DNA of 64,000 nt from Loripinus fragilis (lineage: Eukaryota; Mollusca; Bivalvia; Lucinida; Lucinidae). Below the pieces are notes generated by a model. It did no database searches, was not told the origin of the DNA, and saw only the letters and a list, made by a program, of their open reading frames with translations. Of this stretch, positions 32,094-62,064 are shown piece by piece. The stretch covers positions 70,229,753 to 70,293,752 of the forward strand of contig OZ026525.1 in the NCBI GenBank assembly GCA_964019695.1, written 5' to 3'. The number at the start of each line of letters is the position of its first letter. Position 1 is the stretch's first letter. Made by a program: the position numbers and the translations under genes.

Positions 32094-33012
32094 CATGTGC
32101 GGATCCAGAAAGTTTTGTCAGGGGGTCCAACATTGACAAACATTAACAATTTTTTTGTTTTTTTATAAGTTGACGAGGGGAGAGAGGACCCAAATAACGC
32201 TATAAGCGGGCCATTATTGGCCCGCCAGCGAAACGCCATTTCAATGGCGTTTCGCTGGCGTGTCGGTGATGGTCCAACATTGAATGCTGGCTTTGTAGCT
32301 TTGCGATTTTTCAAGGGATCCGGACCAGTATTGCTAAGAAACTCTTAGGGGTCCAACATTTACAAACATTAACAATTTTTTTTTTGTTTTTTTTATAAGT
32401 TGACGAGGGGAGAGAGGACCCAAATAACACTATAAGCGGGCCATTATTGGCCCGCCAGCGAAACGCAATTTAAGTGGCGTTTCGCTTGCATGCTGATGAT
32501 GGCCCATCATTGAATGCTGGCTTTGTAGTTCTGTGATTTTTCAAGGGATCCGGACCAGTATTGCTAAGAAACCCTATATTTTTGTGATTTTTCAGGGAGT
32601 CCGGACCCCAGGGGGGGGAGGGTACTCTAATTTTTTCCTCATACGTAGGCTTGGGCCCAGCATCTACCGTTCACCCCAAAAAAATATCAGGAATTTCAAG
32701 CATCCCAAAATAATATCTAAAATTTCAGCAACCCCAAAAAATATCCCAATTCTGTACATTGACCTTAAAAAAGACCCTAAAATGCATAGAAATGACCCTC
32801 AAATTAGTCCAATTTTGTGATGACCAAAAAATTAACCACAAAATCTTCACACCCCAAGAAAATTTTCATTTTTCTGAAAACACAAAAAAATATTGAATTT
32901 CAGAATTTTGAACCCAAAAAAATAGCCCAAGCCTACGTATACATGAAAATATCAGAGTACCCCCATGGGGTCCGGACCCCATGCCCCCCCCCCCCCCTCT
33001 GGATCCGCCTAT
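32094..33012. repeat. Dispersed GGATCCGGACC repeat cluster
   Basis: Two head-to-tail ~240 bp units (about 32098-32335 and 32340-32575) share GTTGACGAGGGGAGAGAGGA and a strong hairpin GCGAAACGCCATT / AATGGCGTTTCGC. A third part (about 32597-33007) has inverted ends GTCCGGACCCCAGG / GGGGTCCGGACCCC and GCTTGGGCCC / AGCCCAAGCCTACG. Related units recur at 61190-61480 and 61680-61985. The cluster ends just before the SLX1 exon's splice acceptor. Confidence 0.7.
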
Positions 33013-34906: not shown

Positions 34907-35159
34907 AGTAGTTATATTTGAGGGATGACATCATGAGGGTGCTGCTGAGTCAGCAAAAACACAAGAGGGATAACATCCTGATGGTGCTGCTGAGTCAGCA
35001 AAAAGTACAAGAGGGATAACGTCCTGAGGCTGTCATTTTGCTAACGCCAGCAGGAATCCTGAGGCTGTCATTATGTTAACGTCAGCAGGAATAACATCTT
35101 GAGTGAATATGCTGACATAGGTATATACAGATATAGGACTAGACATCCCGACGTATATC
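34907..35159 (+). repeat. Left terminal inverted repeat, 253 bp
   Basis: I compared it base by base with the inverse of 60259-60511 and saw no difference. Within it, GAGGGATAACATCCTGA and TGCTGCTGAGTCAGCAAAAA are tandemly repeated, as is CCTGAGGCTGTCATT followed by a TAACG.CAGCAGGAAT word. Confidence 0.95.
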
Positions 35160-36302: not shown

Positions 36303-38178
36303 AATCAGCAAATTTCAAGATAATTTTTCTCCCATGACCATCCTAATGTAAGACAATGATGTATTTAAATCAATAAAGTGATATATGTTCTCAAACAAAA
36401 ATGGAAGAAACCCGTGTGTTTTTTCTTCTCTTACATGCAATTGTGTTAAGGTAGCAGCAACCCTTTTCAAAATCTTAGAAATCGACCAAAAAGGCACATT
36501 TAAACATATTTTTTCTCCCATGACTATCCTAATGTAAGACAATGATGTATTTAAACATATAAAGTAACGTATGTTCTTAAGCAAAAATGCAAGAAACCCA
36601 TGTGTTTTTTCTTCTCTTGCGTGCAATTGTGTTAAGGTAGCAGCAACCGTGTTCAAAATCTAAGAAATCTGCCAAAATGGCACATTTTAACATAATTTTT
36701 CTCCCATAACCATCCTAATGTAAGACAATGATGTATTTAAATCAATAAAGTGATATATGCTCTCAAACAAAAATGGAAGAAACCCGTGTGTTTTTTCTTC
36801 TCTAACATGCAATTGTGTTAAGGTAGCAGCAACCCTTTTCAAAATCTTAGAAATCGACCAAAAAGGCACATTTAAACATAATTTTTCTCCCATGACCATC
36901 CTAATGTAAGACAATGATGTATTTAAACCAATAAAGTAATGTATGTTCGTAAGCAAAAATGTAAGAAACCCATGTGTTTTTTCTTCTCTTGCGTGCAATT
37001 GTGTTGAGGTAGCAGCAACCGTTTTCAAAATCTAAGAAATCTGCCAAAATGGCACATTTTAACATAATTTTTCTCCCATGACCATCCTAATGTAAGATAA
37101 TGATGTATTTAAATCAATAAAGTGATATATGTTCTCATACAAAAATGGAAGAAACCCGTGTGATTTTTCTTCTCTAACATGCAATTGTGTTAAGGTAGCA
37201 GCAACCCTTTTCAAAATCTTAGAAATCGACCAAAAAGGCACATTTAAACATAATTTTTCTCCCATGACCATCCTAATGTAGGACAATGATGTATTTAAAC
37301 CAATAAAGTAATGTATGTTCGTGAGCAAAAATGCAAGAAACCCATGTGTTTTTTCTTCTCTTGCGTGCAATTGTGTTAAGGTAGCAGCAACCGTTTTCAA
37401 AATCTAAGAAATCTGCCAAAATGGCACATTTTAACATAATTTTTCTCCCATGACCATTCTAATGTAAGACTATGATGTATTTAAACCAATAAAGTAATGT
37501 ATAACCTTAAGCAAAAATGCAAGAAAAAAAATGTGTTTTTCCTCTCTTGCGTGCAATTGTGTTAAGGTAGCAGCAAACGTTTTCAAAATCTAAGAAATCG
37601 GCAAAAATTGGCACATTTTAACATAATTTTTCTCCCATGACCACCCTAATGTAAGACAGTGATGTTTTAGAACCAATAAAGTAATGTCTGTTCTTAAGCA
37701 AAAATGCCAGAAACCCGTGTGTTTTTTCCTCTCTTGCGTGCAATTGTGTTAAGGTAGCAGCAACCGTTTTCAAAATCTAAGAAATCTGCCAAAATGGCAC
37801 ATTTTAACATAATTTTTCTCCCATGACCATCCTAATGTAAAACAATGATATATTTAAACCAATAAAGTAATGTACGACTTAAGCAAAAATGCAAGAAACC
37901 CATGTGTTCTTTCTTCTCTTGCGTGCAATTGTGTTAAGGTAGCAGCAACCGTTTTCAAAATCTAAGAAATCGGCAAAAATGGCACATTTTAACATAATTT
38001 TTCTCCCATGACCATACTAATGTAAGACAATGATGTTTTAAAACCAATAAAGTAATGTATGTTCTTAAACAAAAATGCAAGAAACCCATGATTTTTTTCT
38101 TCTCTTGCGTGCAATTGTGTTAAGGTAACAGCAACCGTTTTCAAAATAGAAGAAATCAGCAAAATGACACATTTTAAC
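36303..38178. repeat. ~186 bp satellite, 372 bp higher-order period
   Basis: About ten head-to-tail units, each with TTTTTCTCCCATGACCATCC, AATGATGTATTTAAA, and GCAATTGTGTTAAGGTAGCA. In the left six, two unit types alternate: one has CAACCCTTTTCAAAATCTTAGAAATCGACC, the other CAACCGTTTTCAAAATCTAAGAAATCTGCC. This gives open 113-codon minus-strand frames every 372 bp (36315, 36687, 37059). Later units are mostly of the second type. 186 is divisible by three, which keeps the frames open; I do not treat them as genes. Confidence 0.9.
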
Positions 38179-39717
38179 ATAAAATTTCTATGATGTGTGA
38201 AATGTTAAAGTACAAGTGTAAACAAAATGAATAGTTTGACCACGATGAGGGGCGGGGGAGCACTTCAGTATTTTTTTTTATATTTTCTATATGTTGAATA
38301 TGTGTAGCAAAAACAGAGTTTTTACCCATATCTTTAAATTGTTATTTGTCCAATGAGAAAAACACTTTTGTGGAAAATTCGAGAGTTGAACCTACTATCT
38401 TTTTCATGGAAAAAAATAATTTTCTTTGAAACTTTTATCCGGCCATTTTATGGGCAATCCTTCATTAAGACTGTCCGATGTCCTTTAAAAGCATGCATGC
38501 ATTTTGTGTGCAATTGTATTAAATTTAAGGAATATGTATTAAACCACTTTCAAAATCTAAGAAATGGAGGAAAAGGCACATTTCAAGATATTTTTTCTCC
38601 TATAGTGGATAAACCACTCGGTTATAAACCAGGGGTTGTTGGTTTGATTCTTGGCTTCTCTCGTCTTTCCATGACCGTTATTGCTTAACTGTTGGTTGAA
38701 CGTTGAACAGAATCACACTGTTTCATATTGGCGATCGATAACACTATAATTGCATTCTACTATACTACCGTTATGACAATCGAAAACCCTATTTTCGGCG
38801 ATCGAAAATGTAGTTTTGATAAATCCGTGTCTTGGAGGTCGCCCTAACCCGTTGTGGTAAGTCTTGACATAGCTGGAAAAAGCCATGAAGAACGGAATTT
38901 TTGTGTTTAATGAGTTGTGCATGTGTTTTTTGGCAGGCCTGTTAGGGAGTATGTTAGGGGGGCTACATCTAGAATATTGAAGTTTGACGCAAAAGATAAA
39001 TAAAATAAATAAATAATACTCAGTGTCTCTGGGTCTGGTACCGGGCATTCTTTGAGATCAGTATCGGACACCTAGACACAGAGTCTCAGAGTCAGATGCC
39101 AGGCCCTGAGCCCCACCTATAAGGAGTGACCCAGGGTCTGGTAGTATGTGCATTGTCCAGCACATTGTTGAATAACTGGCTCAACCCACGGACTTGTCGT
39201 ATTTTTTTTGTCTTTGCCACATTGCACTTTCAATAGTTAGCAAAAAGCGATTGCAGGCACATTGTTTAATTGCTATCGTACCCGACAAAGATAATCCTAA
39301 CGCTGTGATACGATTTTCGCGAACAGTACAATTATACACAATTAACGACCAATCATCCTTGAAGCTGTGTAATTTTTCGAGTGAAACGCGCAGTCTTTGA
39401 AAGCTGCAAAGGGCAGAGTTTCTAACAAGACAAGCTCTACGATATCATGAAGTATCTTAACACTGTACTAGCGGCGGCATGAACATGAAATCCAGATGGA
39501 TATGAAAAGAAAAAACCAGGTATATTTGATCGTCCGTCTGTCTGCCACTCCGTCCGTCCGTCTGCCAGGAACCTAGATTAGATTGCGTGATTGAAATATT
39601 TTTCTTTATTCCCAACCAATGAAATTGTTCTTCTGAGCACCCAAAAGCTGGATAAGAATTTATTCACAGCATACCGAACAGCATGATTACAGTAATGCTT
39701 CAGTTGTTGCATATATA
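38179..39717. other. Left-arm spacer with satellite remnants
   Basis: A diverged single satellite unit lies near 38500-38600 (CACTTTCAAAATCTAAGAAATGG). TCCGTCCGTCTGCC-type simple sequence lies at 39530-39570. No gene seen. Confidence 0.4.
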
Positions 39718-43117: not shown

Positions 43118-43495
43118 CAGTGTCAGCAAAAAAAAAATCTAATGAGTACCCACAACCTATGTCTCGGAGCAAAAATAAGAAAAATAATCCATACCCCTGC
43201 AAACCCCACCTTTTTTACAAAAAATAATCTAATGAGTACCCACAACCTATGTCTCGGAGCAAAAATAAAAAAATAATCCATACCCCCTGCGAACCCCACC
43301 TTTTTTACAAAAAAATAATCTAATGAGTACCCACAACCTATGTCTCGGAGCAAAAATAAGAAAAATAATCCATCCCCCCTGCAAACCCCACCTTTTTTAC
43401 AAAAAAATAATCTAATGTGTACCCACAACCTATGTCTAGGAGCAAAAATAAGAAAAATAATCCATTCCCCTGCAAACCCCCCACTTTTTACATTA
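43118..43495. repeat. ~91 bp tandem repeat, four copies
   Basis: The words AATCTAATGAGTACCCACAA, TATGTCTCGGAGCAAAAATA and CTGCAAACCCCACC recur at about 43136, 43227, 43318 and 43409. The open minus-strand frame across it is an artefact of the repeat. Confidence 0.9.
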
Positions 43496-48772: not shown

Positions 48773-48967
48773 ATGATTCTGACATTATTGTATTTATTTC
48801 ACGAGTATGTGGCTAAGTCATTTATTCCCTATTACAAATTGAGAAGCGAAGCGTTTGAAGCATCAAACCGACTGATTGAATGTTGGGAAGAGCAATTCGC
48901 TAGAAAGAAAAGAAAATTGAAGAAAACACAGATATATCTTGAAAATGACAAAGAAACTGTCATATAG
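48773..48967 (+). CDS. Small hypothetical ORF overlapping the integrase start
   Basis: 64 residues: a hydrophobic start (ILTLLYLFHEYVAKSFIPYY) and a basic C-terminus (RKKRKLKKTQ). The ATG is well placed downstream of a TATA box. It overlaps the integrase start (48945) by 23 bp in another frame. No family recognised. Confidence 0.4.
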   Translation: MILTLLYLFHEYVAKSFIPYYKLRSEAFEASNRLIECWEEQFARKKRKLKKTQIYLENDKETVI

Positions 48968-50069
48968 GCAAAAAAAGATCTTGAACGACTATTATTTTAA
49001 CGTTTCTAATCCCGCTGCTTATGCTGGTTCCGAAAAGCTATTAAGAGTGCTAAACAAAAAATATCCAAAGGTATTTACGAAATCGGCGATCGATGCCTGG
49101 TTAACGGGTGTGGATGCATATTCTGTTTCTAAAACACCCAGAAGGAGATTCAAGACACCGAAAATAGTCGTGACACATATACATGAACAGTTAGAAATAG
49201 ATTTAGCTGCAGTTGAAAATTTGAGCAAATATAACGATGGTGTACGTTTTTTATTATTCATCCTTGACGTTTTCTCGCGTTATCTTTGGGTGAAACCACT
49301 GAAAGACAAACGAGGGCAGAGCATATTGAATGCGCTGTGACCAATTATTACACAGCTGAAGGTCAAGAAGATCCGCAGTGACCACGGGAGTGAATTTGTG
49401 AATAAAGTCGTGCAAAACTATTTGAAGAAACGGGATATCTATTTTTTTACGACAAATTCACCAGTCCATGCAGCCATGGTAGAAAGAGTTCAGGCCACAT
49501 TTAAAAAGAAACTATACCGTTATTTACGTCACAAGAGAAATAACCGCTACATCGACGACCTCCAAAAACTTGTGGATAGTTATAACGCCACACCCCACAG
49601 AAGTTTGAATTACGTAGCACCCAATGACGTCAACAAAGAAAATGAAGCTTATATTTGGGCTTATATGTATTTAAAGAAGACGGGAAGCAAGAAGACAAGG
49701 AAAATCACTCCATTTCGTTTCAGAGTGGGTGACTACGTTCGTATTTCTTACCTCAGACACCCATTTAGAAAATCTTATGAACAACAATTTACAACGGAAT
49801 TATTCAAGATTAAAAAACGTTGGCGTATTCAAGGATATCCATTTTACAAGTTATCGTCTTGGGATGGTAAAGAAACTATACAGGGTAATTTTTATGAGAC
49901 AGACTTAACACCCGTTGATGCGTCAGACACAGACAAATTGTTCTTCATTGAGAAACTCATCAGAAAGAAAATAATAAATGGACAACTCCATTATCTTGTC
50001 AGGTGGGAAGGGTATCCCACGAGAATGAACTCTTACGTGTTAGCCAGCGAAATTAAGACATTAGCATAA
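48945..50069 (+). pseudogene. Maverick integrase, lineage A, with in-frame TGA
   Basis: A retroviral-type (rve, DDE) integrase that would insert the element. The N-terminal domain begins MTKKLSYRQKKILNDYYFN with the family's NPAAYAGSEKL and WLTGVDAYS signatures. The first catalytic Asp is in LEIDLAAV, the second in RSDHGSEF, and the Glu in MVERVQATF. The C-terminus has a basic VGDYVRISYLRHPF segment and a chromodomain (YLVRWEGYPTRMNSYV). An in-frame TGA at 49338-49340 splits it between the first and second catalytic residues; the frame is otherwise continuous. The stop is followed by C (TGA-C), a context that can be leaky, so readthrough cannot be excluded. Start chosen at ATG 48945 because upstream codons include only TTG. 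Confidence 0.9.
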
Positions 50070-50171
50070 AAAATCAAAGAAACCTGATTCAAGCTTGCTC
50101 TTGATGACCACCAGTGTGGGAAAACAGCTGTTCACAAGTCTGTAATACTTCTGGAGAATCAGCATATCAGA

Positions 50172-50306
50172 ATGGATCACTATGTTTACATTCGAAGTGA
50201 TGACAGTGATGAATATTTCAAAGATAACGAAGCGTATAGCTTTAAAATTCACTTGAACTCCCCGCTTGTGCTTACAGGAGCCTGGAAAGTTGGACTGACA
50301 ATATAA
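50172..50306 (+). pseudogene. Minor capsid protein 5' fragment, lineage A
   Basis: A 44-codon frame reading MDHYVYIRSDDSDEYFKDNE then FKIHLNSPLVLTGAWKVGLT. This matches the start of the complete minor capsid protein at 51242 (FRVHLSRPMRLTGNWSVSLL) in spacing and key residues. It breaks off where the lineage B integrase sequence begins. It lies 102 bp after the lineage A integrase, the same order as in the second set. Confidence 0.8.
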
Positions 50307-51186
50307 TCAGGGTTATCAGTATGTACTCGTACTTCAGGATGTGTTTTCACGATACATCTTTACAGTCCCAATAAGAAATAAAAAGGCTAGCGTAGTTGTA
50401 ACTGCTTTGAAATCTGTGCTTGAAAAAAGCAGCCGTAAGCCTGAGATTTTACGCACTGATAAAGGAAGTGAATTCAAAAACAAGCAAATGGCCAGTTTTC
50501 TGAATGAGCAAGGTATTCATCAAATATTTACGCAAAATGAAACCAAAAGTAATTTTGCTGAGAGAGCTATTCAGAACCTTCGAGCCAAAATGTCACGCAT
50601 GTTTTCACAGAAAAACTCATTTAAATATTTAAAAGAATTACAGGATATAACAAATGGTATCAACAATACTCCAAACCGATCACTTGGTAATATTGAACCT
50701 TCAAGTGTTAATAAGTCAAATGAAGATGAAGTTCGTCTAAATGCGTATCTTGTAAGATCAAACACAAAATTAAAATCTGTCAAAAACACAAGGAAAAAAC
50801 CACATTCAACCACTCGTAAAATGTATAAGAGGCCAGTTTATAAGTTTAAAATCAATGATCGAGTTAGGATAAGTCGCTTAAAAACCCCTTTTCTTAGAGA
50901 AGCAAGTGAAAAATGGACTGGTGAAATTTTTATTATCTCACACAGATATTTGAGAGATAACATCCCAGTATACAAGTTAAAAGAATTTGATCAAATTCCT
51001 CTTTTAGGAACGTATTATACCCAAGAATTGCAGAAAGTAAATATATCTTCTTCAAAAGTTTTTAAAGTGTCTAGCATTTTGAGAAAAAGAAAAGTTAATG
51101 GAAAAACTGAGGTGCTCGTTTCTTGGGAAAACTGGCCTCAGAAATATAATAGTTGGGTACCAGAGCATGACATAGAAAATATTTAA
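50299..51186 (+). pseudogene. Maverick integrase, lineage B, 5' truncated
   Basis: The open frame starts at 50299 with YNQGYQYVLVLQDVFSRY, a few residues past where the first catalytic Asp should be. It continues with RTDKGSEFKN (second Asp), NFAERAIQNLRAKM (Glu), a basic NDRVRISRLKTPF region and an intact chromodomain (VLVSWENWPQKYNSWVPEHD). It is only distantly similar to the integrase 1 kb upstream, so it is not a recent duplicate. The N-terminal zinc-binding-like region and the first Asp are missing; catalytically dead. Confidence 0.88.
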
Positions 51187-51198
51187 ATTATCCACGAG

Positions 51199-51206
51199 TA
51201 TAAAAG
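51199..51206 (+). promoter_or_regulatory. TATA box of the capsid block
   Basis: TATAAAAG followed by a G-run lies 36 bp before the minor capsid ATG. Similar TATA words precede most genes of the element. Confidence 0.6.
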
Positions 51207-51241
51207 GGGGACCCCCTCAACATTTCATCATCACAAGTAAA

Positions 51242-51667
51242 ATGATGACCTTACGGATGGTGTTATCATCTTCTGACAGTACTGAGGTATATAGTGATAA
51301 CAAGCCACACGACTTTAGAGTTCATCTGTCCAGGCCTATGAGACTGACTGGAAATTGGAGTGTGTCTCTTCTCGAATTTTCCATGCCAGTTGTACAAAGC
51401 AAACTACCAACTCATGAATTATTCATATTCGCCAGTATCTGCGGTGATACCATTCTTTCTGGAAAAGAACTCCCTCTACTTAGACGCGTATACTTGACTA
51501 AAGATGACAATATCATCTACCAGTTTCCTTTTGAGGTACCCTTGAGAGTAGGTCAATTTCAAGATATACACATCTATATAAAAGATGCGAATGGTCACCC
51601 TGCATCATTTTTAAATCAGAAAGTGACTGTGACACTTCAGTTAAAAAAACACATATTCATTACTTAG
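51242..51667 (+). CDS. Minor capsid (penton-like) protein
   Basis: 141 residues from the first of two adjacent ATGs. The N-terminal signature of Polinton minor capsid proteins is clear: LSSSDSTEVYSDNKPHDF, VHLSRPMRLTGNWSVSL, LEFSMP. The rest (VYLTKDDNIIYQFPFEVPLR, VTVTLQLKKH) is beta-rich and fits a single jelly roll forming capsid vertices. Transcribed from its own TATA box and followed by core and major capsid genes. It is short relative to many family members, which may carry extra domains. Confidence 0.8.
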   Translation: MMTLRMVLSSSDSTEVYSDNKPHDFRVHLSRPMRLTGNWSVSLLEFSMPVVQSKLPTHELFIFASICGDTILSGKELPLLRRVYLTKDDNIIYQFPFEVPLRVGQFQDIHIYIKDANGHPASFLNQKVTVTLQLKKHIFIT

Positions 51668-51709
51668 TATTGTAGAGGAGACAGATTGAGAAGGTAAACG
51701 TTTTCAAAT

Positions 51710-51886
51710 ATGGCAGGATCTACTTACATTTCAGACCCTCGTATTTGGAAATCATTTTATAAAAACATGATTCATGGAAAATTCAAACCTACTCAATACA
51801 AAGGACGTCAAACTGGAAGAGGTATTGGTAATATGTATGCAAAGAAGCCATACATGATTCCTGTAAATCGTCACGTATCAAAATAA
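51710..51886 (+). pseudogene. Core protein, N-terminal piece ending at an in-frame TAA
   Basis: 58 codons (MAGSTYISDPRIWKSFYKN, then GRGIGNMYAKKPYMIPVNRH) ending VSK-TAA at 51884-51886. The same frame stays open after the stop and enters the basic region described next, so the stop looks like a point mutation in one gene. By position and composition this is the DNA-condensing core protein of Mavericks, comparable to basic adenovirus core proteins. Confidence 0.65.
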
Positions 51887-51961
51887 CCAGAAATAGAGCA
51901 AGTTATCGTAGGAAAACAAATTACACCCGTAACTGCTGTAGAAGAACGAGCAAAAACAGAA

Positions 51962-53545
51962 ATGAAAGAAGCAATTCAAGAAGATATGCCACATGTTCCC
52001 GCGAGTATAAAACGACCAACAAGAAGAAAATCTGTCAGTATGAAAAGCAGATTGAAGAAGAAAGGATCTAAGAAAAAGAAAATCCGAAGGTGGCAGTCCC
52101 GGAAATCATTTCAAAAGTCGCTTAAAGCTCATCATAAGAAAAGAAAAACAACTGGCCGAAGAAGTGGACAGAAGAAGAAAACCAAACCAGTCAAATCTAG
52201 AAAGCGAAAACATTCAGATTTTGGGGGAGACAGTAACGATATATTTTCAAAAAAAATGGCGTATCTCAACGACAAACTAACAGAAATTGGGCAGCCAGCA
52301 GAATTGTCAGTGTTTACTGTCCCCCCAAATCAGGTGGCCATTGAAAAAACATACTTTACTGAATGTAGACCTGTATCCTCTTACAACACTGAAGACACAC
52401 CTATTGAAATCTCAATACCAGGAGGCTCAAATGAATACCTCGATCTTAGGAGAAGTCGCCTGTATGTAAAATGCAAAATACTGAAATCAGATGGTACATC
52501 CCTAGCTTCCAATGAAGAAACCGGAATAATCAATTTACCTCTTCAAAGTTTGTGGTCTCAAATTGATACATATATGAATGGAAAACTTGTAAGCGTTAAT
52601 AGTTCTTATTACCCATGGAAAAGTTATATGAAAGTATTGCTTTCAAATGGAAAAGACATAGCCATGTCACAAATGCAGTCACAGCTTTTCTTTCTGGATG
52701 ATTACGATGTTGATGATGCCAGTGCATCCACTGGCTCGAATGGCGGTTTGGCTGGTCGATACCAATTTACTAAAGAGAGTCAAGTTTTTGACATGGAAGG
52801 ACCACTTTATGAAGATATATTTCTCATTGATAAGTATCTTGTGAATGGAGTGGACATACATCTAAAACTTTTCAGAAACAGAGCAACCTTCTGTATAATG
52901 AGCTCAGAAACTACACCTAACTACAAAATTGAGTTACTTGATGTAGTTTTCAAAGCATGCATGATTCGTGTTGACAGCGGAGTTTTGTTGAATCATGCAG
53001 AAATTCTTAAAGACACAACAGCCAAGTATCCTCTGTCAAGAACAGAACTGAATACATGTCCAAGTGGATCTGGATCATTCATTTGGCAGCATGTGTGGGC
53101 AAATAACTTACCTACCAAAGTGTTCTTTGCTTTTGTAAAACAGGCTGCAGTGAATGGGTCTTGGAAGCATAACCCATTCAATTTCTTGAATGTTGCAGAA
53201 GAAATAGCTTTGTACATAAATGGAGAAAGTGTACCAGCTAGGCCCATGAAGATAGATGTTGGAACAAACAAAAACTATGTGACACGTTTTGTGAACCTGT
53301 TTGAAGTTGCTGAAAAATGGAACAAAGATGCTGGTCTTCAGATTAACAGAAAAATGTTTGATGAAGGTTATGCCATATACGCTTTTAATCTGGCTCCTAG
53401 TGACCTCGGTGAAGAATATATAAATCTGGTACGACAAGGAAGTGTCAGACTTGAGGTGAAGTTTGCCTCAAACACAACAGAAACTTTGAACTGTCTAGCA
53501 TATGCACAGTTCCCAGCATTGTTGGAAATTGCCCATTCACGATAA
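51962..53545 (+). CDS. Basic core-protein tail in one frame with the major capsid protein
   Basis: A 527-residue frame. Residues 1-98 are extremely basic (SRLKKKGSKKKKIRRW, GRRSGQKKKTKP) and end HSDFGGDSNDIF. From Met99 (52256) begins the Polinton major capsid protein, a double jelly-roll hexon-like shell protein: MAYLNDKLTEIGQPAELSVF, then ISIPGGSNEYLDLRRSRLYV, VNGVDIHLKLFRN, FNLAPSDLGEEYI. Capsid proper is ~429 residues, the expected size. Usually these are two genes. Here no stop separates them; TTT-TCA before the AAAAATGG start may be a lost TAA. Internal initiation at 52256 would still give a normal capsid protein. The first ATG is an internal one, as the core gene proper starts at 51710. 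Confidence 0.85.
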   Translation: MKEAIQEDMPHVPASIKRPTRRKSVSMKSRLKKKGSKKKKIRRWQSRKSFQKSLKAHHKKRKTTGRRSGQKKKTKPVKSRKRKHSDFGGDSNDIFSKKMAYLNDKLTEIGQPAELSVFTVPPNQVAIEKTYFTECRPVSSYNTEDTPIEISIPGGSNEYLDLRRSRLYVKCKILKSDGTSLASNEETGIINLPLQSLWSQIDTYMNGKLVSVNSSYYPWKSYMKVLLSNGKDIAMSQMQSQLFFLDDYDVDDASASTGSNGGLAGRYQFTKESQVFDMEGPLYEDIFLIDKYLVNGVDIHLKLFRNRATFCIMSSETTPNYKIELLDVVFKACMIRVDSGVLLNHAEILKDTTAKYPLSRTELNTCPSGSGSFIWQHVWANNLPTKVFFAFVKQAAVNGSWKHNPFNFLNVAEEIALYINGESVPARPMKIDVGTNKNYVTRFVNLFEVAEKWNKDAGLQINRKMFDEGYAIYAFNLAPSDLGEEYINLVRQGSVRLEVKFASNTTETLNCLAYAQFPALLEIAHSR

Positions 53546-53562
53546 GTCAAGTATACACAAGT

Positions 53563-54024
53563 ATGAACTTAGATCAATTGATGTGCGTTATCAAGGAACG
53601 ATTTTGCTTATCTATGATTGCAAGAAAGATCTATTCGCCAGACACATTACCTCAGTATATTAGTTTCTTTCCTTGCGCATATATAGTCAATACGGATCCT
53701 TCGAACCTTCCAGGGGAACACTGGATTGTGTTTTGGTTAGAAGATGCAGTTACATCCGAATATTTTGATAGCTTTGTAAATCTACCAGAGACTTACAGTT
53801 CTAGTTTTGCTGGATTTTTGGAAAGAAATACAGAAACATGTACATATAATAACATTCAATTCCAAAAGAGAGACAGGACAACGTGTGGATATTATGTATT
53901 GTTCTATTTGTTAATGAAATGTGAGAGAAAAAGTATATTAGACATATGCAATATTTTAGATAGTCTTAAATCACCTGATGACTTTGTGTACAGCTATATT
54001 TTGAATCGTTCTAACTGTTTTTAA
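53563..54024 (+). CDS. Adenain-like cysteine maturation protease
   Basis: 153 residues, 17 bp after the capsid stop. The active site is readable: His53 in GEHWIVFW, Asp69 in YFDSF, a Gln near 101 in FQKRDRTTCG, and Cys108 in TCGYYVLFYL. Family members (peptidase C5 / Ulp1-like fold) trim virion proteins during maturation. Appears intact. AATAAA signals follow at 54051-54063, so the capsid-protease transcript may end here. Confidence 0.9.
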   Translation: MNLDQLMCVIKERFCLSMIARKIYSPDTLPQYISFFPCAYIVNTDPSNLPGEHWIVFWLEDAVTSEYFDSFVNLPETYSSSFAGFLERNTETCTYNNIQFQKRDRTTCGYYVLFYLLMKCERKSILDICNILDSLKSPDDFVYSYILNRSNCF

Positions 54025-54050
54025 TGTATGTAGTATTATGATGTCTTGGT

Positions 54051-54063
54051 AATAAAAAAATAA
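54051..54063 (+). terminator. Polyadenylation signals after the protease gene
   Basis: Overlapping AATAAA words 27 bp after the protease stop. Confidence 0.55.
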
Positions 54064-54157
54064 ATACAAAATGAAATGTTGTTTTAATGTAGTATCCTAT
54101 AAAATCAACCTTTTGAAGATAGTTTGTAATTAAGTTACTAGCACCTACACGCTAAAC

Positions 54158-54394
54158 ATGGAAGAACATATAGATGAAGAAAAATGGTGGCAAAAGAATT
54201 CTCTTTTACCATTTCACTCCAGTACAACTATCTTGGTATCCAGTTCAACTATGACAGGAAAGTCAGAGCTTATACGTAAAATGTTGAAGAAGTCATCAGG
54301 CATGTTTGAGGTTTCGCCCAAACGTATTATATATGCCTTTTGCGAGTATCAAAATTCACTTCTTGACTCAAAATGCTCACAAATATCAATTTAA
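54158..54394 (+). pseudogene. Packaging ATPase 5' fragment, lineage B
   Basis: Starts MEEHIDEEKWWQKN and contains a P-loop STMTGKSELIRKML, then VSPKRIIYAFCEYQNSLL. It matches the beginning of the complete ATPase at 54739 (IIVVASTGCGKTHLVYQLL, APKSVIYCFNVYQKPLF) at roughly a third of positions. It stops after ~70 residues, with no Walker B. The genuine match ends about 54365, where protease-like sequence begins. Confidence 0.75.
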
Positions 54395-54527
54395 TGACAA
54401 AAAACTACAAAACGATCGTTCGAAAGTTTGTGGTGAATATTCGGTTCTCTATTTACTTTGTAAAGCGCGAGGATATACTATGGGGGAGATAGTTGATAGA
54501 CTTTCATTTGATCACAGTGACCAATAA
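54371..54527 (+). pseudogene. Adenain-like protease 3' fragment, lineage A
   Basis: In a second frame, QFNDKKLQNDRSKVCGEYSV then LYLLCKARGYTMGEIVDRL gives the Gln and the nucleophile Cys region and C-terminus of an adenain-like protease. The catalytic His and Asp part is absent. It differs strongly from the intact protease at 53563. It is fused behind the ATPase 5' fragment. Confidence 0.75.
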
Positions 54528-54689
54528 GTATATGATTTGAGAAAAATGTTTTTTACATGTGCTTTTCATCTCCTCAGACCATTTGTACAAATAATCAGAA
54601 TTTTAAGCCACTGATAAAAAATATTGGACTTTAAAATTGAGTTATTAAAATATTTTTATTCATACTTGGGCTTCTCTTTTTTCAATTCC

Positions 54690-54738: not shown

Positions 54739-55404
54739 ATGTCTCGAACAGCAATTATACCGTTTCAAACACCTTCAAATATTATAGTGGTTGCAAGCAC
54801 GGGCTGTGGTAAAACACATCTAGTCTACCAACTTTTGCAAAATGCCTCTGTAATGTTTGAATCTGCACCTAAATCTGTAATTTATTGCTTTAATGTCTAT
54901 CAAAAACCTTTGTTCGACCAGATGAAGACTGAAATTAAAAACATAGAATTCTTCGAAGGGTTGCCAGGTAGAGAAAACTTACATGAAAGGAATAAAATCA
55001 ACAGTGGTCATAAAATAATTGTATTAGATGACCTTTTACAAAAGGCAAGCACAAGTAATGATATTGTTGACTTGTTTTGTGTACTGTCTAGCCATATGAC
55101 CTATACGGTGTTTTTTTTAGTTCAAAACGTCTTCGGTGATTCGAAAAAGCTGAGAACGATATCACTGAATGCACATTATTTCGTCATCTTTAAAAATCAA
55201 CGTCATCAAGGACAAGTCCAGACGTTAGGATCTCAAATTTTTCCTGGGCAAACGGCGTTTTTCATGGATGCATATAAAAAGGCCGTTTCACGACCATATG
55301 GCTATTTATTAATAGACATTCACCCGAGAGGAAACCCATCTTATGCTTTACGAAGCAATATTTTACCGAATGAAACCACGCTAGTGTACAAACCACTAAA
55401 ATGA
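54739..55404 (+). CDS. FtsK/HerA-type genome packaging ATPase, lineage A
   Basis: 221 residues. Walker A ASTGCGKT (19-26), Walker B KIIVLDD (92-98) and the family's FLVQNVFG sensor segment, then FVIFKNQRHQGQ and an arginine-bearing SRPYGYLLIDIHPR. Such ATPases pump DNA into the capsid. The frame is intact with its own TATA box. The stop overlaps the next start (ATGA), implying coupled expression. It follows the lineage A protease remnant and is therefore assigned to the resident lineage. Confidence 0.9.
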   Translation: MSRTAIIPFQTPSNIIVVASTGCGKTHLVYQLLQNASVMFESAPKSVIYCFNVYQKPLFDQMKTEIKNIEFFEGLPGRENLHERNKINSGHKIIVLDDLLQKASTSNDIVDLFCVLSSHMTYTVFFLVQNVFGDSKKLRTISLNAHYFVIFKNQRHQGQVQTLGSQIFPGQTAFFMDAYKKAVSRPYGYLLIDIHPRGNPSYALRSNILPNETTLVYKPLK

Positions 55405-56177: not shown

Positions 56178-56414
56178 GAGGAGATGATGTACTTATCAAA
56201 TTGCTGAGTGAAACAAAATTTTGATATTACTCAAAATGCTGAGACAAGCAAAACATTTGCCATCACGTGACATATTAGACTATATATAATGGATGAGGAG
56301 ATGATGTACTTATCAAATTGCTGAGTGAAACAAAATTTTGATATTACTCAAACTGCTGAAACAAGCAAAACATTTGCGGTCACGTGACATATTAGACTAT
56401 ATATAATGGATGAG
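56178..56414 (+). promoter_or_regulatory. Tandemly duplicated polymerase promoter region
   Basis: A 117 bp unit occurs twice. Each copy contains CTTATCAAATTGCTGAGTG, a CACGTGAC E-box-like site, and ACTATATATAATGGATGAG, a TATA box (56279-56290 and 56396-56407). The second TATA lies ~80 bp before the polymerase ATG at 56489. A 25-codon ORF (56406-56483) precedes the polymerase start in another frame. Confidence 0.7.
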
Positions 56415-56488: not shown

Positions 56489-59400
56489 ATGCATACTAAT
56501 GATAAGAAGAAGGAGATTCATTGCCCTGTATGTGGAAAACAATTCAAGTTGGCTAAAAATCGAAACTTACATAAGGCGACTCATTCCACATTGTATGAAT
56601 GTAGAATTTGTGGTCGCAACTATACTAGATTAGTGAATTTACGAAGACACATGAAGATACTCCACATGAACAATCAACGAGGGGGACAATCCACACCAGC
56701 ACCACCAGCGAGAATTGTAACAGACCACGCAACTCAAACGGCGATAAATTACAAGGTGCAAATTAAAACACTCTGGCCACGTAATCATGATCGCTATGAC
56801 TTATTGTCGTTTTTGGCAAGCGCCAAAGAGAAGGTGAAGGGAACAATCAGGCTGCGAGCCAGACATACTGCAGTAAAATGGTACGTAGTTGCAAGAGTTC
56901 AACTTTATCGAGAGGACAACGAAGGAAACGTTGTTACAATTGAACCATACTTCAGAAGTGTTACATACAGAACACTAACACCGACAGAGTTGACAGATCA
57001 TCACTTAAACGAAGCCTTTCAGAAAGTCATGGCTGGATTAGAAAAATTCATTCACGAGAGTTCCGGATGGATTGTAAAATCAGTCAAATATCTCCAAGTA
57101 CACACAATTGACTATACACCATTAGCTGCCTCTAGCTTCATCGAGCTACCTACAACATTAAAAAGATCAAAGTCTATACTGAACATTAAAAATGAAGATA
57201 ACAGGTGTTTCATATACTGTATTCTAGCAAAGCTATTCCCACATGTTTCGAACCCACATCATGCATCTAGTTACATTACGCATGAAAATGAATTAAAACT
57301 CAATGGACTTACATTTCCAATGACTTTGTCACAGATAAATAAATTTGAAAGGCTAAACAAAACGATATCAGTTAACGTGTTTGGGTTCGAAAACTCTGAA
57401 ATAATTCCTCTTAGGATAACAAAAAACACCCAAAGGCAACATCATATAAACTTGTTGCACATGAAAACAGATCAAACGTCACATTACTGCCTCATCAGAG
57501 AGTTTGACACATTCTTAGGGAGGACCAAATCCAGGAAATGCAAACACTTTTTTTGCTACTTTTGCCTCAATGGTTTTACAAATAAGAAAATGCTTATCAA
57601 ACACATTCCGCTCTGTAGAAGTCATGGAGCTCAAAAGGTGGTCATGCCTATTCAAGGACATAATGACACGGTGTCATTTAAAGATTATTTAAAGCAAATG
57701 CGTTTACCATTTGTAATTTGCTGTGATTTTATGACATTAAATAGACGGATTGACACGTGTGAAAATGCTCCAAACAAGTCTCAGACTGTACCAAAAAAAC
57801 CACTAGATGTATCGAGTTTTGGCTATAAAGTTGTTTGCAGCGTGGATTTGAACTACACGAAGTCAGTTCGAATATACCGTGGCAAAGATGCATCGAGTAA
57901 ATTCCTCGAATGTTTACTAGAGGAGCAAAGTGAAATCCAAGAGCTCCTGAAGAGAAATGAACCTATAAAAATGACATGCAAAGACATAAAACAATATCAA
58001 AAAGCCACTCACTGCTACATATGTGGTGGAGGTTTTGAAGAGCCACAAGACAAATGTCGCGATCACTGTCATTTATCAGGGAAGTACAGGGGTGCTTCTC
58101 ACATGACTTGTAATCTGGTTTATAAGACTCTGTCTTTCATTCCAGTGGTGATTCATAACCTTCGTGGCTTTGACGGTCATTTGATTGCACAAAGTCTAGG
58201 TCAATTTGATGGAAAAATCAGCTGTATACCTCAAAATCTTGAAAAATACCTCAGTTTCAGTTTTCAAAATTTAAGGTTTATAGATTCCCTCCAGTTTCTG
58301 AGTGCGTCATTAGATGCACTGGTAGTGGACCTCAAAATGGACACTAAAAACCTAGACTATAATTTCAGACATTTTTTCTCAGAATTTAACAATAGAGAGG
58401 ACACAAAAGGTTTACTTCAAAAGAATGCATATCCTTACGATTACATGGACTGCGAGACAAAGTTTGAAGAAACTCGTCTGCCGCCGATTGATTGTTTTTA
58501 TTCGTCAATAAAGAACCAAGGGATAAGTCAAGACGAATACGATCGAGCCTGTCAGCTATTTGATTACATGAGTCTGCGTAATCTTGGAGAATGGTCAGAT
58601 CTGTATTTGAAGATGGACGTCCTACTGTTATGTTCGGTCTTCGAAAATTTCAGAGATGTGACAATGGACGAGTTTCAGCTAGACCCAGTGCATTTTTACA
58701 GCTCCCCTGGTCTCAGCTGGGCGGCCATGTTGAAGATGACAAAAGTAGAACTGCAACTTCTCACTGACATAGACATGTTGCATTTTGTAAGGAGAGGCCA
58801 GCGTGGTGGATTAAGCTTCATCGGTCACAGACACGTGGTGGCCAATAATTCACTAGTACCAAATTACGACCTTTCGAAACCCCTTTCGTACATTCAACTT
58901 TTGGATGCAAACAACTTGTATGGTTGGGCTATGAGTCAACCATTGCCCAAAGGAGGTTTCAGATTTTTAAAAGAGCGAGAATTAGAACATCTTGACATTC
59001 TGAACATTCCCGATGATAATCAAAAGGGCTACCTTGTCGAGGTTAGCCTTCGCTATCCGAAAAAAATTCATGACCTACACAACGGCTTCCCTCTTGCACC
59101 TGAAAAGAAATGCATTGCTAACGATCAATTGTCTCCCTATGCTAAGACTTTATGGCTACAACTTCATCCTAGTAAATCTGGGAAAATTGTAGGACGACCG
59201 AAACAAGAGAAACTCATCACCGATCTACACGATAAAGATCATTACGTTGTTCACTACAGGAATCTAAAACTGTACGTGCAACTTGGCATGGAAATTAAAT
59301 CAATTCATAAGGCACTAGAGTTCAACCAAGATACTTGGCTTAAGCGCTACATCGATTTCAACACACAAAAAAGGAAAGACGCCAAAACACAATTCAAAAA

Positions 59401-60197
59401 GAAATTTTACAAGATACTTAACTGTAGTGTGTTCGGCAAAATGATGGAAGACCAACTCAAGTATAAAAACATTTCCCTGGTTTCAAATCCTAAAGCACTG
59501 AAAAAAAATAACTTCAAAACCTACTTTCGAGACGTGTAAAATATTCCATGAAAAGCTCGTGGCTGCACAGTGTAGAAATGCAAGCGTTGCCATCACAAAA
59601 CCAGTCTATGTCGGACAAGCTGTCTTAGACTTGAGCAAAGTCCTTATGTATGATTTCTACTATAACTATCTCAAAAGCAGGTATGGAGCCAAGTGCAATT
59701 TGTTGATGACGGACACGGATTCCTTCCTGTATGAGATTCGTGACACCAAGTCAGATTTATACATGGACATGAGAGACTACATATATTTGTTTGACACATC
59801 AGATTATCCCCCAGATCATTTTCTTCATTCAGACGGAAACAAAAAAGTTTTGGGGAAATTTAAAGACGAAACGAACGGAACCACAATTGAAAGATTTTGT
59901 GGTCTTCGATCAAAACTCTACGTTTATAAGGTGGTTAATAATGAAAGAGAGGTTAAAAAAGCAAAAGGTGTTTGTAAAGCCGCCATTAAGAAGAAGTTAT
60001 ATTTCACGTTATACGAAGAGGCATTATTCAAAAACAAAGAAACCGTGTTGTCGATGGACTTAATTCGAAGCCATTCACATGTACTAAAAGTTGAAACTCT
60101 GTATAAAAAATGTCTATCAAGTTTTGATGATAAACGATACTTAAAAGAGGATGGAGTCAGTAGTTATGCATATGGACATTATAAAATAAAAGAATAA
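56489..60197 (+). pseudogene. Protein-primed-type DNA polymerase B, frameshifted
   Basis: Replicates the element. Start at ATG 56489. Two C2H2 fingers open the protein (CPVCGKQFKLAKNRNLH, CRICGRNYTRLVNLRRH). A further Cys-rich finger is at about 355-380. An endonuclease VII-like zinc motif CYICGG...CRDHCHLSGKYRG lies near 510-545. Exo II HNLRGFDGHLI and Exo III LYLKMDVLLL are present, but Exo I reads CCDFMTLN where a DxE is expected. Polymerase motif A is LLDANNLYGWAM, motif B KILNCSVFGKMM (Cys where Asn is usual), motif C LMTDTDSF. A one-base offset at about 59537 creates a TAA (59537-59539). The reading continues in the next frame to 60197, separating motif C from A and B. The stop is 61 bp from the right terminal repeat. 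Confidence 0.93.
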
Positions 60198-60258: not shown

Positions 60259-60511
60259 GATATACGTCGGGATGTCTAGTCCTATATCTGTATATACCTA
60301 TGTCAGCATATTCACTCAAGATGTTATTCCTGCTGACGTTAACATAATGACAGCCTCAGGATTCCTGCTGGCGTTAGCAAAATGACAGCCTCAGGACGTT
60401 ATCCCTCTTGTACTTTTTGCTGACTCAGCAGCACCATCAGGATGTTATCCCTCTTGTGTTTTTGCTGACTCAGCAGCACCCTCATGATGTCATCCCTCAA
60501 ATATAACTACT
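60259..60511 (-). repeat. Right terminal inverted repeat, 253 bp
   Basis: Inverse of 34907-35159 with no difference seen. It ends ...AACTACT followed by the GATAACGT duplication. Confidence 0.95.
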
Positions 60512-62064
60512 GATAACGTTCGTTTATCATAAATTTGTTCACAGTGAAGGCTCAAACGAGCTTGCGCATGCGCACAGTCTCACCAGGGCCTTTACTGCTT
60601 GTTTACTGAATGCGAGAGCATTTAATCAATGGAAATGACGCCTTTCCCGAAATTTAGAACAAAACTAAAACTTTGAAAACAAATTTATTTTCTGATTTGA
60701 GGGTGCGTCATCCATAGTGCAGTGGGATTCCCACAGCCTATAACATGCTTTGGGAAATATTACTGTGTTTATAGTCCATCCATGTATGATGTCATTGATG
60801 CCAGCAAACAAGACGATTACCTGCACTAATACAGGATTTTTTTATTATTTAACTGAACTCTATTTTTTCTGAGTCCTATGTACCCTTCATGTCTTGTGAT
60901 GTGATAGAAACCCTGTTATATTGTATACAAACAATATACTGTAAAGGCTCTAGCGAGACTGCGCATATGTGCAAGCTCGTCTGAGTCTTAACTGTGAACT
61001 GACTAATGATGTACATGTATGACCATTGAACAGAACTGAGTTTTATTCGAAATCCTGTAGGCTATAGAGCTCGCAAGGAATACAATCTACATCTTTCGGA
61101 GAAGGCGTGCTTAATTTTCTATCTTGCATATCCACTACCTTCAGTAAACAAGCAGTAAAGGCTCTGGCGAGACTGTGCGTATGCGCATGGGCGGATGAGG
61201 GTGGACATGGGGTCTGGACCCAGACTGTGCGTATGCGCATGGGCGGATTCAGAGGGGGGACATGGGGTGTGGACCCCCCTGAAAAATCACAAAACTATAG
61301 GGTTTTCTAGCAATACTGGTATGGATCTCCAGAAAAAATCACAAGGTTACCAAGCCAGCATTAAATGTTGGGCCATCATTGGTACGACAGTCTCTCCCTT
61401 CATCAACTAAGAAAAAAACAAACAAACAAAAAACGTTGCCAAAGTCGGACCCCCTCTGGCAAAACTTTCTGGATCCGCGCAAAATGTGCAAACTCGTCTG
61501 AGCCTTCACTGAGATCTGACTTATGATGTACATGCATGATCATTGAACAGAACTGAGTTTTATTCGAACTCCTGTAGGCTATATAGCTCGCGAGGATACA
61601 ATCTACATCTTTCGAGGAAGGTGTGCTTAATTTTCTAACTCTTCAATAAACAAGCAGTAAAGGCTCTGGCGAGACTGTGCATAATCGCATGGGTGGATCC
61701 AGAGGGGGGAAAGGGGGTTCGGACCCCCCCCCCCCTGAAAAATCACAACTCTATAGGGTTATAGCAATACTGGCCCGGATCCCCTGAAAAATCACAAGGT
61801 TACAAAGTCAGCATTCAATGTTGGGCCATCAACGGTACGACAGTGAAACTCCATTTTAATGGCGTTTGCTGGCGGGCCGATGTTGGTCCGCTTATGGTGG
61901 TATTTGGATCGTCTCTCCCCTCGTCAACTAAGAAAAAAACGTTGTCAAAGTCGGACCCCCTCTGGCAAAACTTTCTGGATTCGTGTAAGATGCGAGAACT
62001 CGTCTGAGGAGCCTTCACTGTGAACAAATTTATGATGTACGAACGTTATCTATCTTGTAATATA
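60512..62064. repeat. Right flank: dispersed GAGACTGCGCATATGCGC repeats
   Basis: GATAACGT (60512-60519) is the right target duplication. The flank consists of repeated modules: AAGGCTC(T)GGCGAGACTGTG at 60546, 60945, 61157 and 61660, and GCGAGGATACAATCTACATC at 61070 and 61590. GGATCCAGAGGGGGG-type TIR units related to 32.1-33.0 kb lie at about 61190-61480 and 61680-61985. At 61972-62062 is a paralogue of the Maverick target. No gene. Confidence 0.6.

What the first reader, a model, noticed from the sequence alone, without database searches (positions are those of the whole stretch)
50160..54530. Capsid cassette swap between two Maverick lineages
Seen: at ~50.30 kb the 5' part of a minor capsid gene is followed at once by an integrase lacking its first catalytic Asp. 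At ~54.37 kb the 5' part of an ATPase gene is followed at once by the 3' part of a protease. Each broken gene also exists as a second, strongly different copy nearby, in the same gene order (integrase-minor capsid; protease-ATPase). One event explains both junctions: a ~4.07 kb block from lineage B (integrase 3' end, minor capsid, core, major capsid, protease, ATPase 5' end) replaced the resident lineage A capsid genes, leaving lineage A remnants on both sides. This would be a natural exchange of the virion module while integrase, packaging ATPase and polymerase remain resident. Two independent old tandem duplications are the alternative, but they would need the same geometry twice.
Basis: partly seen in the sequence, partly recalled or inferred. 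Interest (0 to 1): 0.95.

Follow-up and report, generated by a model that had tools for sequence, protein, structure and literature searches.

The report
Capsid block swapped between two Mavericks
In this probably bivalve DNA, a virus-like mobile element (a Maverick) holds a 4-kb block of predicted capsid genes that belongs to a second, distantly related Maverick, with torn gene ends of both elements at the two seams, so it likely records a swap of the virus shell between them.

Summary
The element spans 34907-60511, with 253-nt terminal repeats that are 100% identical. Inside it, 50299 to about 54360 is a block of a second lineage. At junction 1 a lineage-A minor-capsid gene stops after 43-44 codons and runs into a lineage-B integrase lacking its first 91 residues. 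At junction 2 a lineage-B ATPase stops after 67-70 residues and runs into the 3' part of a lineage-A protease. Relatives at 94-96% identity (P0069, P0138) carry the missing parts and place both breakpoints to within a few codons. Trees put the two integrases and the two ATPases in separate clades; forcing A and B together is rejected (p-AU 9e-30 and 8e-5), so tandem duplication is out. Replacement of minor capsid, core, major capsid and protease is the best reading. One event, and its mechanism (template switching or end joining), are inferred. This copy is broken: in-frame stops in integrase A and core, and a split polymerase. The whole-genome search tool did not complete, so no other copy was read; a protein pair on one contig hints at a second chimera. 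Exchange of capsid modules in this virus group is known from trees; here both seams are visible in one animal element.

The parts
34907..35159 (+). left terminal inverted repeat, begins AGTAGT
   Evidence: 100% complementary to 60259-60511 over 253 nt; ends read
60259..60511 (-). right terminal inverted repeat, ends ACTACT; followed at once by GATAAC (60512-60517). GATAAC also stands 2 nt outside the left end: likely 6-bp target-site duplication
48948..50066 (+). lineage-A integrase with chromodomain, in-frame stop at 49338
   Evidence: 99% to P0009 and 96% to P0018 over 197 aa, 75-80% to P0001; Chromo E 1.6e-5; stop; tree
50172..50303 (+). lineage-A minor capsid, first 44 codons only (remnant)
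   Evidence: 41-43% identical to minor capsid B over the overlap
50295..50303 (.). junction 1 (A minor capsid to B integrase)
   Evidence: P0069 continues upstream of this point, the window does not
50299..51183 (+). lineage-B integrase without its first 91 residues, chromodomain present
   Evidence: rve E 1.2e-13 and Chromo E 3.1e-8; 96% to P0069, 95% to P0007; tree
51242..51664 (+). lineage-B minor capsid, full length
   Evidence: 47% to L002 and 28% to L001 minor capsids in the same gene order; 46% to the end of P0090
51704..52255 (+). lineage-B basic core protein, in-frame stop at 51884, then open into the capsid frame
   Evidence: 41% over 56 aa to L002 core; stop
52256..53542 (+). major capsid protein, predicted double jelly-roll
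   Evidence: 62% to L002, 33% to L001; Foldseek PDB top hit mavirus major capsid, model weak
53563..54021 (+). lineage-B cysteine protease, full length
   Evidence: profile A9 matches ASFV S273R (E 1.3e-8) and, weakly, adenain; 43% to L002
54158..54367 (+). lineage-B packaging ATPase, first 67-70 residues only
   Evidence: 94% to P0138 residues 1-70, then divergence
54355..54370 (.). junction 2 (B ATPase to A protease)
   Evidence: end of P0138 match; start of protease homology in another frame
54357..54524 (+). lineage-A protease, 3' part only (remnant; keeps the conserved CG motif, lacks the 5' half)
   Evidence: aligned to three proteases
54739..55401 (+). lineage-A packaging ATPase, intact
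   Evidence: 92-94% to P0121, P0122 and P0124, 91% to P0123; Adeno_IVa2 just above cut-off
56489..60194 (+). predicted polymerase, split in two frames near 59505
   Evidence: ORFs and 8-A run; polymerase motifs recalled, not hit by Pfam or PDB

Best explanation
A 4.07-kb block of predicted capsid genes from one Maverick lineage (integrase 3' end, minor capsid, core, major capsid, protease, ATPase 5' end) sits inside a Maverick of a second, deeply separate lineage, where it likely replaced the resident capsid genes in one recombination event that did not use matching genes at the joins. Shown: the block's edges, the lineage of its two end genes, the A remnants on both sides, and the terminal repeats around the whole. 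Inferred: while both elements were being copied in one cell, synthesis left A in the minor-capsid gene, resumed on B inside the integrase gene, ran through the B capsid genes to the ATPase, and returned to A inside the protease gene; or a broken A molecule was patched with a B fragment by end joining. Both joins step backwards in the shared gene order, so that (ignoring later mutations) every gene is present once in full: integrase and ATPase from A, minor capsid to protease from B. That gene set is what selection for a working composite would keep; this is inferred, and the present copy is mutated.
For: Integrase tree: A and B sit on opposite sides of a 100/99 split, A with P0009, P0018 and P0001, B with P0007 and P0069 (101 of 120 listed hits plus the 2 window rows). 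ATPase tree: A with P0121-P0124, B piece with P0138 at 100/100 (101 of 120 listed plus 2). Forcing A and B into one clade: p-AU 8.7e-30 for integrases, 8.1e-5 for ATPases. P0069 and P0138 carry the parts missing at each join. The joined sites lie in different genes, so no gene-length homology could guide them. Five contigs shared by lineage-A-side integrase and ATPase hits show that these two genes travel together in the A family (P0011/P0132, P0018/P0124, P0033/P0136, P0110/P0135, P0114/P0131, pairs noticed by eye). Identical terminal repeats bound one element. In a rough simulation 7.9% of random two-breakpoint replacements keep all six genes in full, 1.5% with three or more A genes replaced.
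Against: No intact B donor, no A element with its own capsid genes and no second copy of either junction was read at DNA level: the genome search failed in 18 of 18 tries. The search for the 78-aa truncated ATPase B found no protein at all, not even the window's own, so it tells nothing either way. Integrase A and core have in-frame stops and the polymerase is split, so this copy gives no sign of present function. The simulation is post hoc and uses uniform breakpoints.
Confidence: 0.8

Rival explanations
1. Stepwise origin: a B fragment (or a whole B element) first landed inside A, and later separate deletions removed the A capsid genes and the rest of B.
For: Mavericks integrate, and broken copies are common in vertebrates (PMC8097293, passage seen). 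Nothing here dates the two junctions relative to each other.
Against: No B terminal repeat was found inside the element (one search lists only the 34907/60259 pair as a long perfect one; the 25 longest of 37 pairs were shown). It needs at least three breaks, and deletions that happen to spare a complete gene set.
Confidence: 0.13
2. Two independent old tandem duplications of integrase-minor capsid and protease-ATPase in one lineage.
For: Same gene order on both sides of each junction.
Against: A and B copies are not sisters: p-AU 8.7e-30 and 8.1e-5; each has 94-99% identical relatives elsewhere.
Confidence: 0.02
3. Assembly chimera: reads of two repeated Mavericks were joined in silico at both seams.
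For: Both lineages have near-identical kin proteins in public data, the setting in which assemblers err. Reads were not available.
Against: Two misjoins within 4.1 kb would be needed. I cannot exclude that this contig is the window's own, although both proteins differ from the window.
Confidence: 0.05

Closest known systems
Mavericks/Polintons of animals (vertebrate set of PMC8097293, passages seen)
   Same: Terminal inverted repeats with (AGT)2//(ACT)2 ends, 6-bp target repeat, chromodomain integrase, adenain-like protease, ATPase, capsid genes
   Different: The vertebrate elements are described as having a conserved architecture; this one is a mosaic of two lineages with two partial extra genes. 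'recombin' occurs there twice; the passages shown concern ectopic recombination only.
Rumen virophages, virophage-Polinton hybrids (PMC4409740, abstract and passages seen)
   Same: Capsid module of one lineage with replication genes of another, attributed to recombination
   Different: Inferred from gene content and trees over a deep distance; in the passages seen no breakpoints or remnant genes are described. Here both breakpoints and remnants are in the sequence.
Polinton-like viruses and module exchange with virophages (PMC4642659, PMC11071308, passages seen)
   Same: Exchange of structural and replication modules within a shared gene pool
   Different: Comparative inference across genomes, mostly of protist and metagenome elements; not a single animal element with both seams visible.

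Membership tests
Maverick/Polinton | Terminal inverted repeats | tested here: met
   253 nt, 100%, ends AGTAGT/ACTACT
Maverick/Polinton | 6-bp target-site duplication | tested here: inconclusive
   GATAAC on both sides, flush at the right end, 2 nt away from the left end
Maverick/Polinton | Retrovirus-type integrase with chromodomain | tested here: met
   rve and Chromo above curated cut-offs in the B piece; Chromo just above cut-off in the A piece
Maverick/Polinton | Adenain-like cysteine protease | tested here: met
   Profile A9: S273R E 1.3e-8; adenain chains E 0.012-0.026
Maverick/Polinton | Packaging ATPase | tested here: met
   Adeno_IVa2 21.1 bits against a cut-off of 21; several of its 120 listed homologues carry PF04665 or PF02456
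Maverick/Polinton | Double jelly-roll major capsid protein | tested here: inconclusive
   The 50 PDB rows shown (of 575 matches with E <= 10) are capsid or D13-type scaffold structures, top E 5e-6, but the model has pLDDT 43 and TM-scores of about 0.3 or less; no sequence hit
[quoted passage not shown]
   No polymerase hit in Pfam or PDB; motifs such as TDTDSF are recognised from recall only
Intact, potentially active Maverick | All conserved genes open | tested here: not met
   Stops at 49338 and 51884, split polymerase

The most novel reading that the evidence does not exclude
Animal Mavericks change coats by homology-independent cassette capture: a resident element keeps its integrase, ATPase, polymerase and terminal repeats and takes up a whole foreign minor capsid-core-major capsid-protease cassette in one step. 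The composite then spread as a new element, with the torn remnants carried along as a mark of the event. The Solemya-symbiont scaffold L002, whose major capsid is 62% like this one while its integrase is only 38% like it, would be a second, older case.
Probability: 0.35. Interest if true: 0.8.

Novelty: new variant of a known kind. Interest (0 to 1): 0.62.

Why it matters
Whether Mavericks are or were real viruses that exchange coats is usually argued from conflicting trees. An element with both breakpoints and remnants of the replaced genes turns this into something that can be dated, counted across copies and checked with long reads. It also suggests which genes tolerate mixing: the packaging ATPase and integrase stay with the resident, while minor capsid to protease move together.

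Tried and rejected
Tandem duplication: rejected by trees and AU tests. Other copies of the junction: the genome search failed 18 of 18 times. The third and last protein search, with the 78-aa truncated ATPase B, found no candidate. Four viral-contig scans (major capsid alone, integrase alignment, ATPase alignment, major-capsid alignment) found no relative. The one genome-contig scan gave 6 loci, of which L001 and L002 were useful; L003-L006 were not followed.

Older capsid/integrase discordance in L002: grouping its integrase with integrase B is rejected (p-AU 6e-6), while its major capsid is 62% identical to the window's against 33% for L001. I do not claim it, because with only three capsids a difference in rates could explain it, and the L002 integrase is a long branch.

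Structure of the major capsid: one AlphaFold job on three sequences, weak. Polymerase identity: not confirmed by Pfam or PDB. Searches failed on my wrong frames; one search was repeated correctly, and the family scan was not repeated as such (its two major capsids went into, against another library).

Literature: 8 searches, listings only, plus passages of five papers. None of the listings or passages seen describes an animal Maverick with both recombination seams; that is a statement about these searches only.

Full report
What is there. The finding lies inside one element bounded by inverted repeats 34907-35159 and 60259-60511, 253 nt and 100% complementary. The ends read AGTAGT and ACTACT, and GATAAC stands directly after the right end and two bases outside the left end. 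These are the (AGT)2//(ACT)2 ends and 6-bp target repeats reported for vertebrate Mavericks (PMC8097293, passage), with a 2-nt offset on the left. No difference in 253 bases suggests a recent insertion, or repair of one repeat from the other.

Gene order. Integrase A (48948-50066), minor capsid A 5' end (50172-50303), integrase B 3' part (50299-51183), minor capsid B (51242-51664), core (from 51704), major capsid (52256-53542), protease B (53563-54021), ATPase B 5' end (54158 to about 54367), protease A 3' end (about 54357-54524), ATPase A (54739-55401), predicted polymerase (56489-60194).

Lineages. The integrase search listed the best 120 of 176 hits at E <= 1e-10. Integrase A is 99% and 96% identical to P0009 and P0018 over 197 residues, and 75-80% to P0001. 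Integrase B is 95-96% identical to P0007 and P0069. In a tree of 101 of the 120 listed hits plus the two window rows (19 short hits left out) A and B lie on opposite sides of a 100/99 split. The ATPase search listed 120 of 255 hits at E <= 1e-8. ATPase A groups with P0121-P0124; the ATPase B piece groups with P0138 at 100/100 (101 of 120 plus 2; the bootstrap had not fully settled and the B row fills only 28% of columns). Constrained trees with A and B kin together are rejected for the integrases (p-AU 8.7e-30; 42 of 120 hits, four other rows) and for the ATPases (8.1e-5; 31 of 120 hits plus 2). So each side of each junction belongs to a different lineage.

Breakpoints. P0069 continues upstream (WDGDLMDTKNIAKYNQGYQ) where the window changes at QYNQGYQ, so junction 1 lies at about 50295-50303. 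P0138 reads EYQNSFSDMEQDIPG where the window reads EYQNSLLDSKCSQISI, so junction 2 lies at about 54358-54367. The protease A reading (HFLTQNAHKYQFND...) begins at the same place in another frame. The joined points lie in different genes, so gene-length homology did not guide the joins; matches of a few bases cannot be excluded without the parental DNA.

Other copies. P0007 starts at the GTG at 50341 (its first residue is M where the window has V), where a gene caller would start a truncated copy like this one; P0009 starts at the ATG that follows the window's stop. Both list a longest contig of 1,076,709 bases. Before its frame-shifted end P0007 differs from the window at 4 residues besides the start, P0009 at 2. 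This hints at a second copy or allele of junction 1, but adjacency was not seen, and I cannot tell whether that contig is the window's own. P0018, starting at the same codon as P0009, lists a contig length shared with P0124, an ATPase A, so A copies with the integrase broken in the same way may be several; their integrase would then act in trans (inference).

State of this copy. Integrase A has an in-frame stop at 49338, the core gene one at 51884, and the polymerase is split near an 8-A run at about 59505, which could be a sequencing slip. The element as read is not functional.

Gene identities. The protease profile matches ASFV S273R (E 1.3e-8) and weakly adenain. The integrases carry rve and/or Chromo domains. 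The major capsid gives a weak model (pLDDT 43); still, the 50 PDB rows shown are capsid or D13-type scaffold structures, headed by mavirus major capsid at E 5e-6, and the best viral match is a Cotesia bracovirus protein at E 8e-16 and 25% identity. TM-scores are low (about 0.3), so this is support, not proof. The polymerase rests on recalled motifs; Pfam and PDB gave no polymerase hit.

Related loci. Two scaffolds filed under the Solemya velum gill symbiont hold integrase-minor capsid-major capsid-protease in the same order (L001, L002), likely host Maverick DNA. L002's major capsid is 62% identical to the window's, its integrase 38%; for L001 the values are 33% and 43%. The L002 integrase does not group with integrase B (p-AU 6e-6). 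This fits an older capsid/integrase exchange, but unequal rates are not excluded with three capsids.

Mechanism. Both joins step back in the shared gene order: from minor capsid A to integrase B, from ATPase B to protease A. The result holds each of six genes in full once, later mutations apart. In a rough simulation with uniform breakpoints over a 4.9-kb six-gene segment, 7.9% of 400,000 random replacements do so, 1.5% with at least three A genes replaced. This is post hoc and shows only that the layout is uncommon by chance and is what selection for a working composite would retain. I favour template switching, or patching of a broken A molecule with a B fragment, in a cell holding both elements; stepwise insertion and deletion is the main rival.

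Comparison. Exchange of capsid and replication modules among Polintons, Polinton-like viruses and virophages is published, inferred from gene content and trees (PMC4642659, PMC4409740, PMC11071308; passages). What this window adds is the seams themselves, with remnants of the replaced genes, in an element with identical terminal repeats. In 8 literature searches I saw no such case in an animal Maverick (listings, plus passages of five papers).

Host. Not named to me. Named integrase hits include bivalves (Saccostrea, Mercenaria, Mya, Ostrea, Tegillarca, Pinctada, Pecten) and bivalve-symbiont assemblies, so a bivalve is likely.

Noticed in passing
L001:1-3989 and L002:1-3577: Two scaffolds of the Solemya velum gill symbiont genome (NZ_JRAA01000003, end of scaffold; NZ_JRAA01000006) hold Maverick integrase, minor capsid, major capsid and protease genes, likely host DNA filed in a bacterial genome. 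Some integrase hits also bear bacterial names (Sedimenticola MAG, Solemya elarraichensis gill symbiont).
   Followed up: partly
window 36308-38189: Tandem array of a 186-bp unit, 10 copies, inside the left arm of the element.
   Followed up: no
window 43127-43492 and 56178-56414: Short tandem arrays (92 bp x 4; 117 bp x 2) inside the element; the second lies just before the polymerase.
   Followed up: no
window 32096-32610 and 61263-61983: Inverted, diverged repeats (about 79-83%) flank the element on both sides outside its terminal repeats; it may have landed in a pre-existing repeat.
   Followed up: no
window 49338: P0009 and P0018 both start at the first ATG after the place of this stop in integrase A, so the stop may be shared by several copies that then would need an integrase in trans.
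   Followed up: partly
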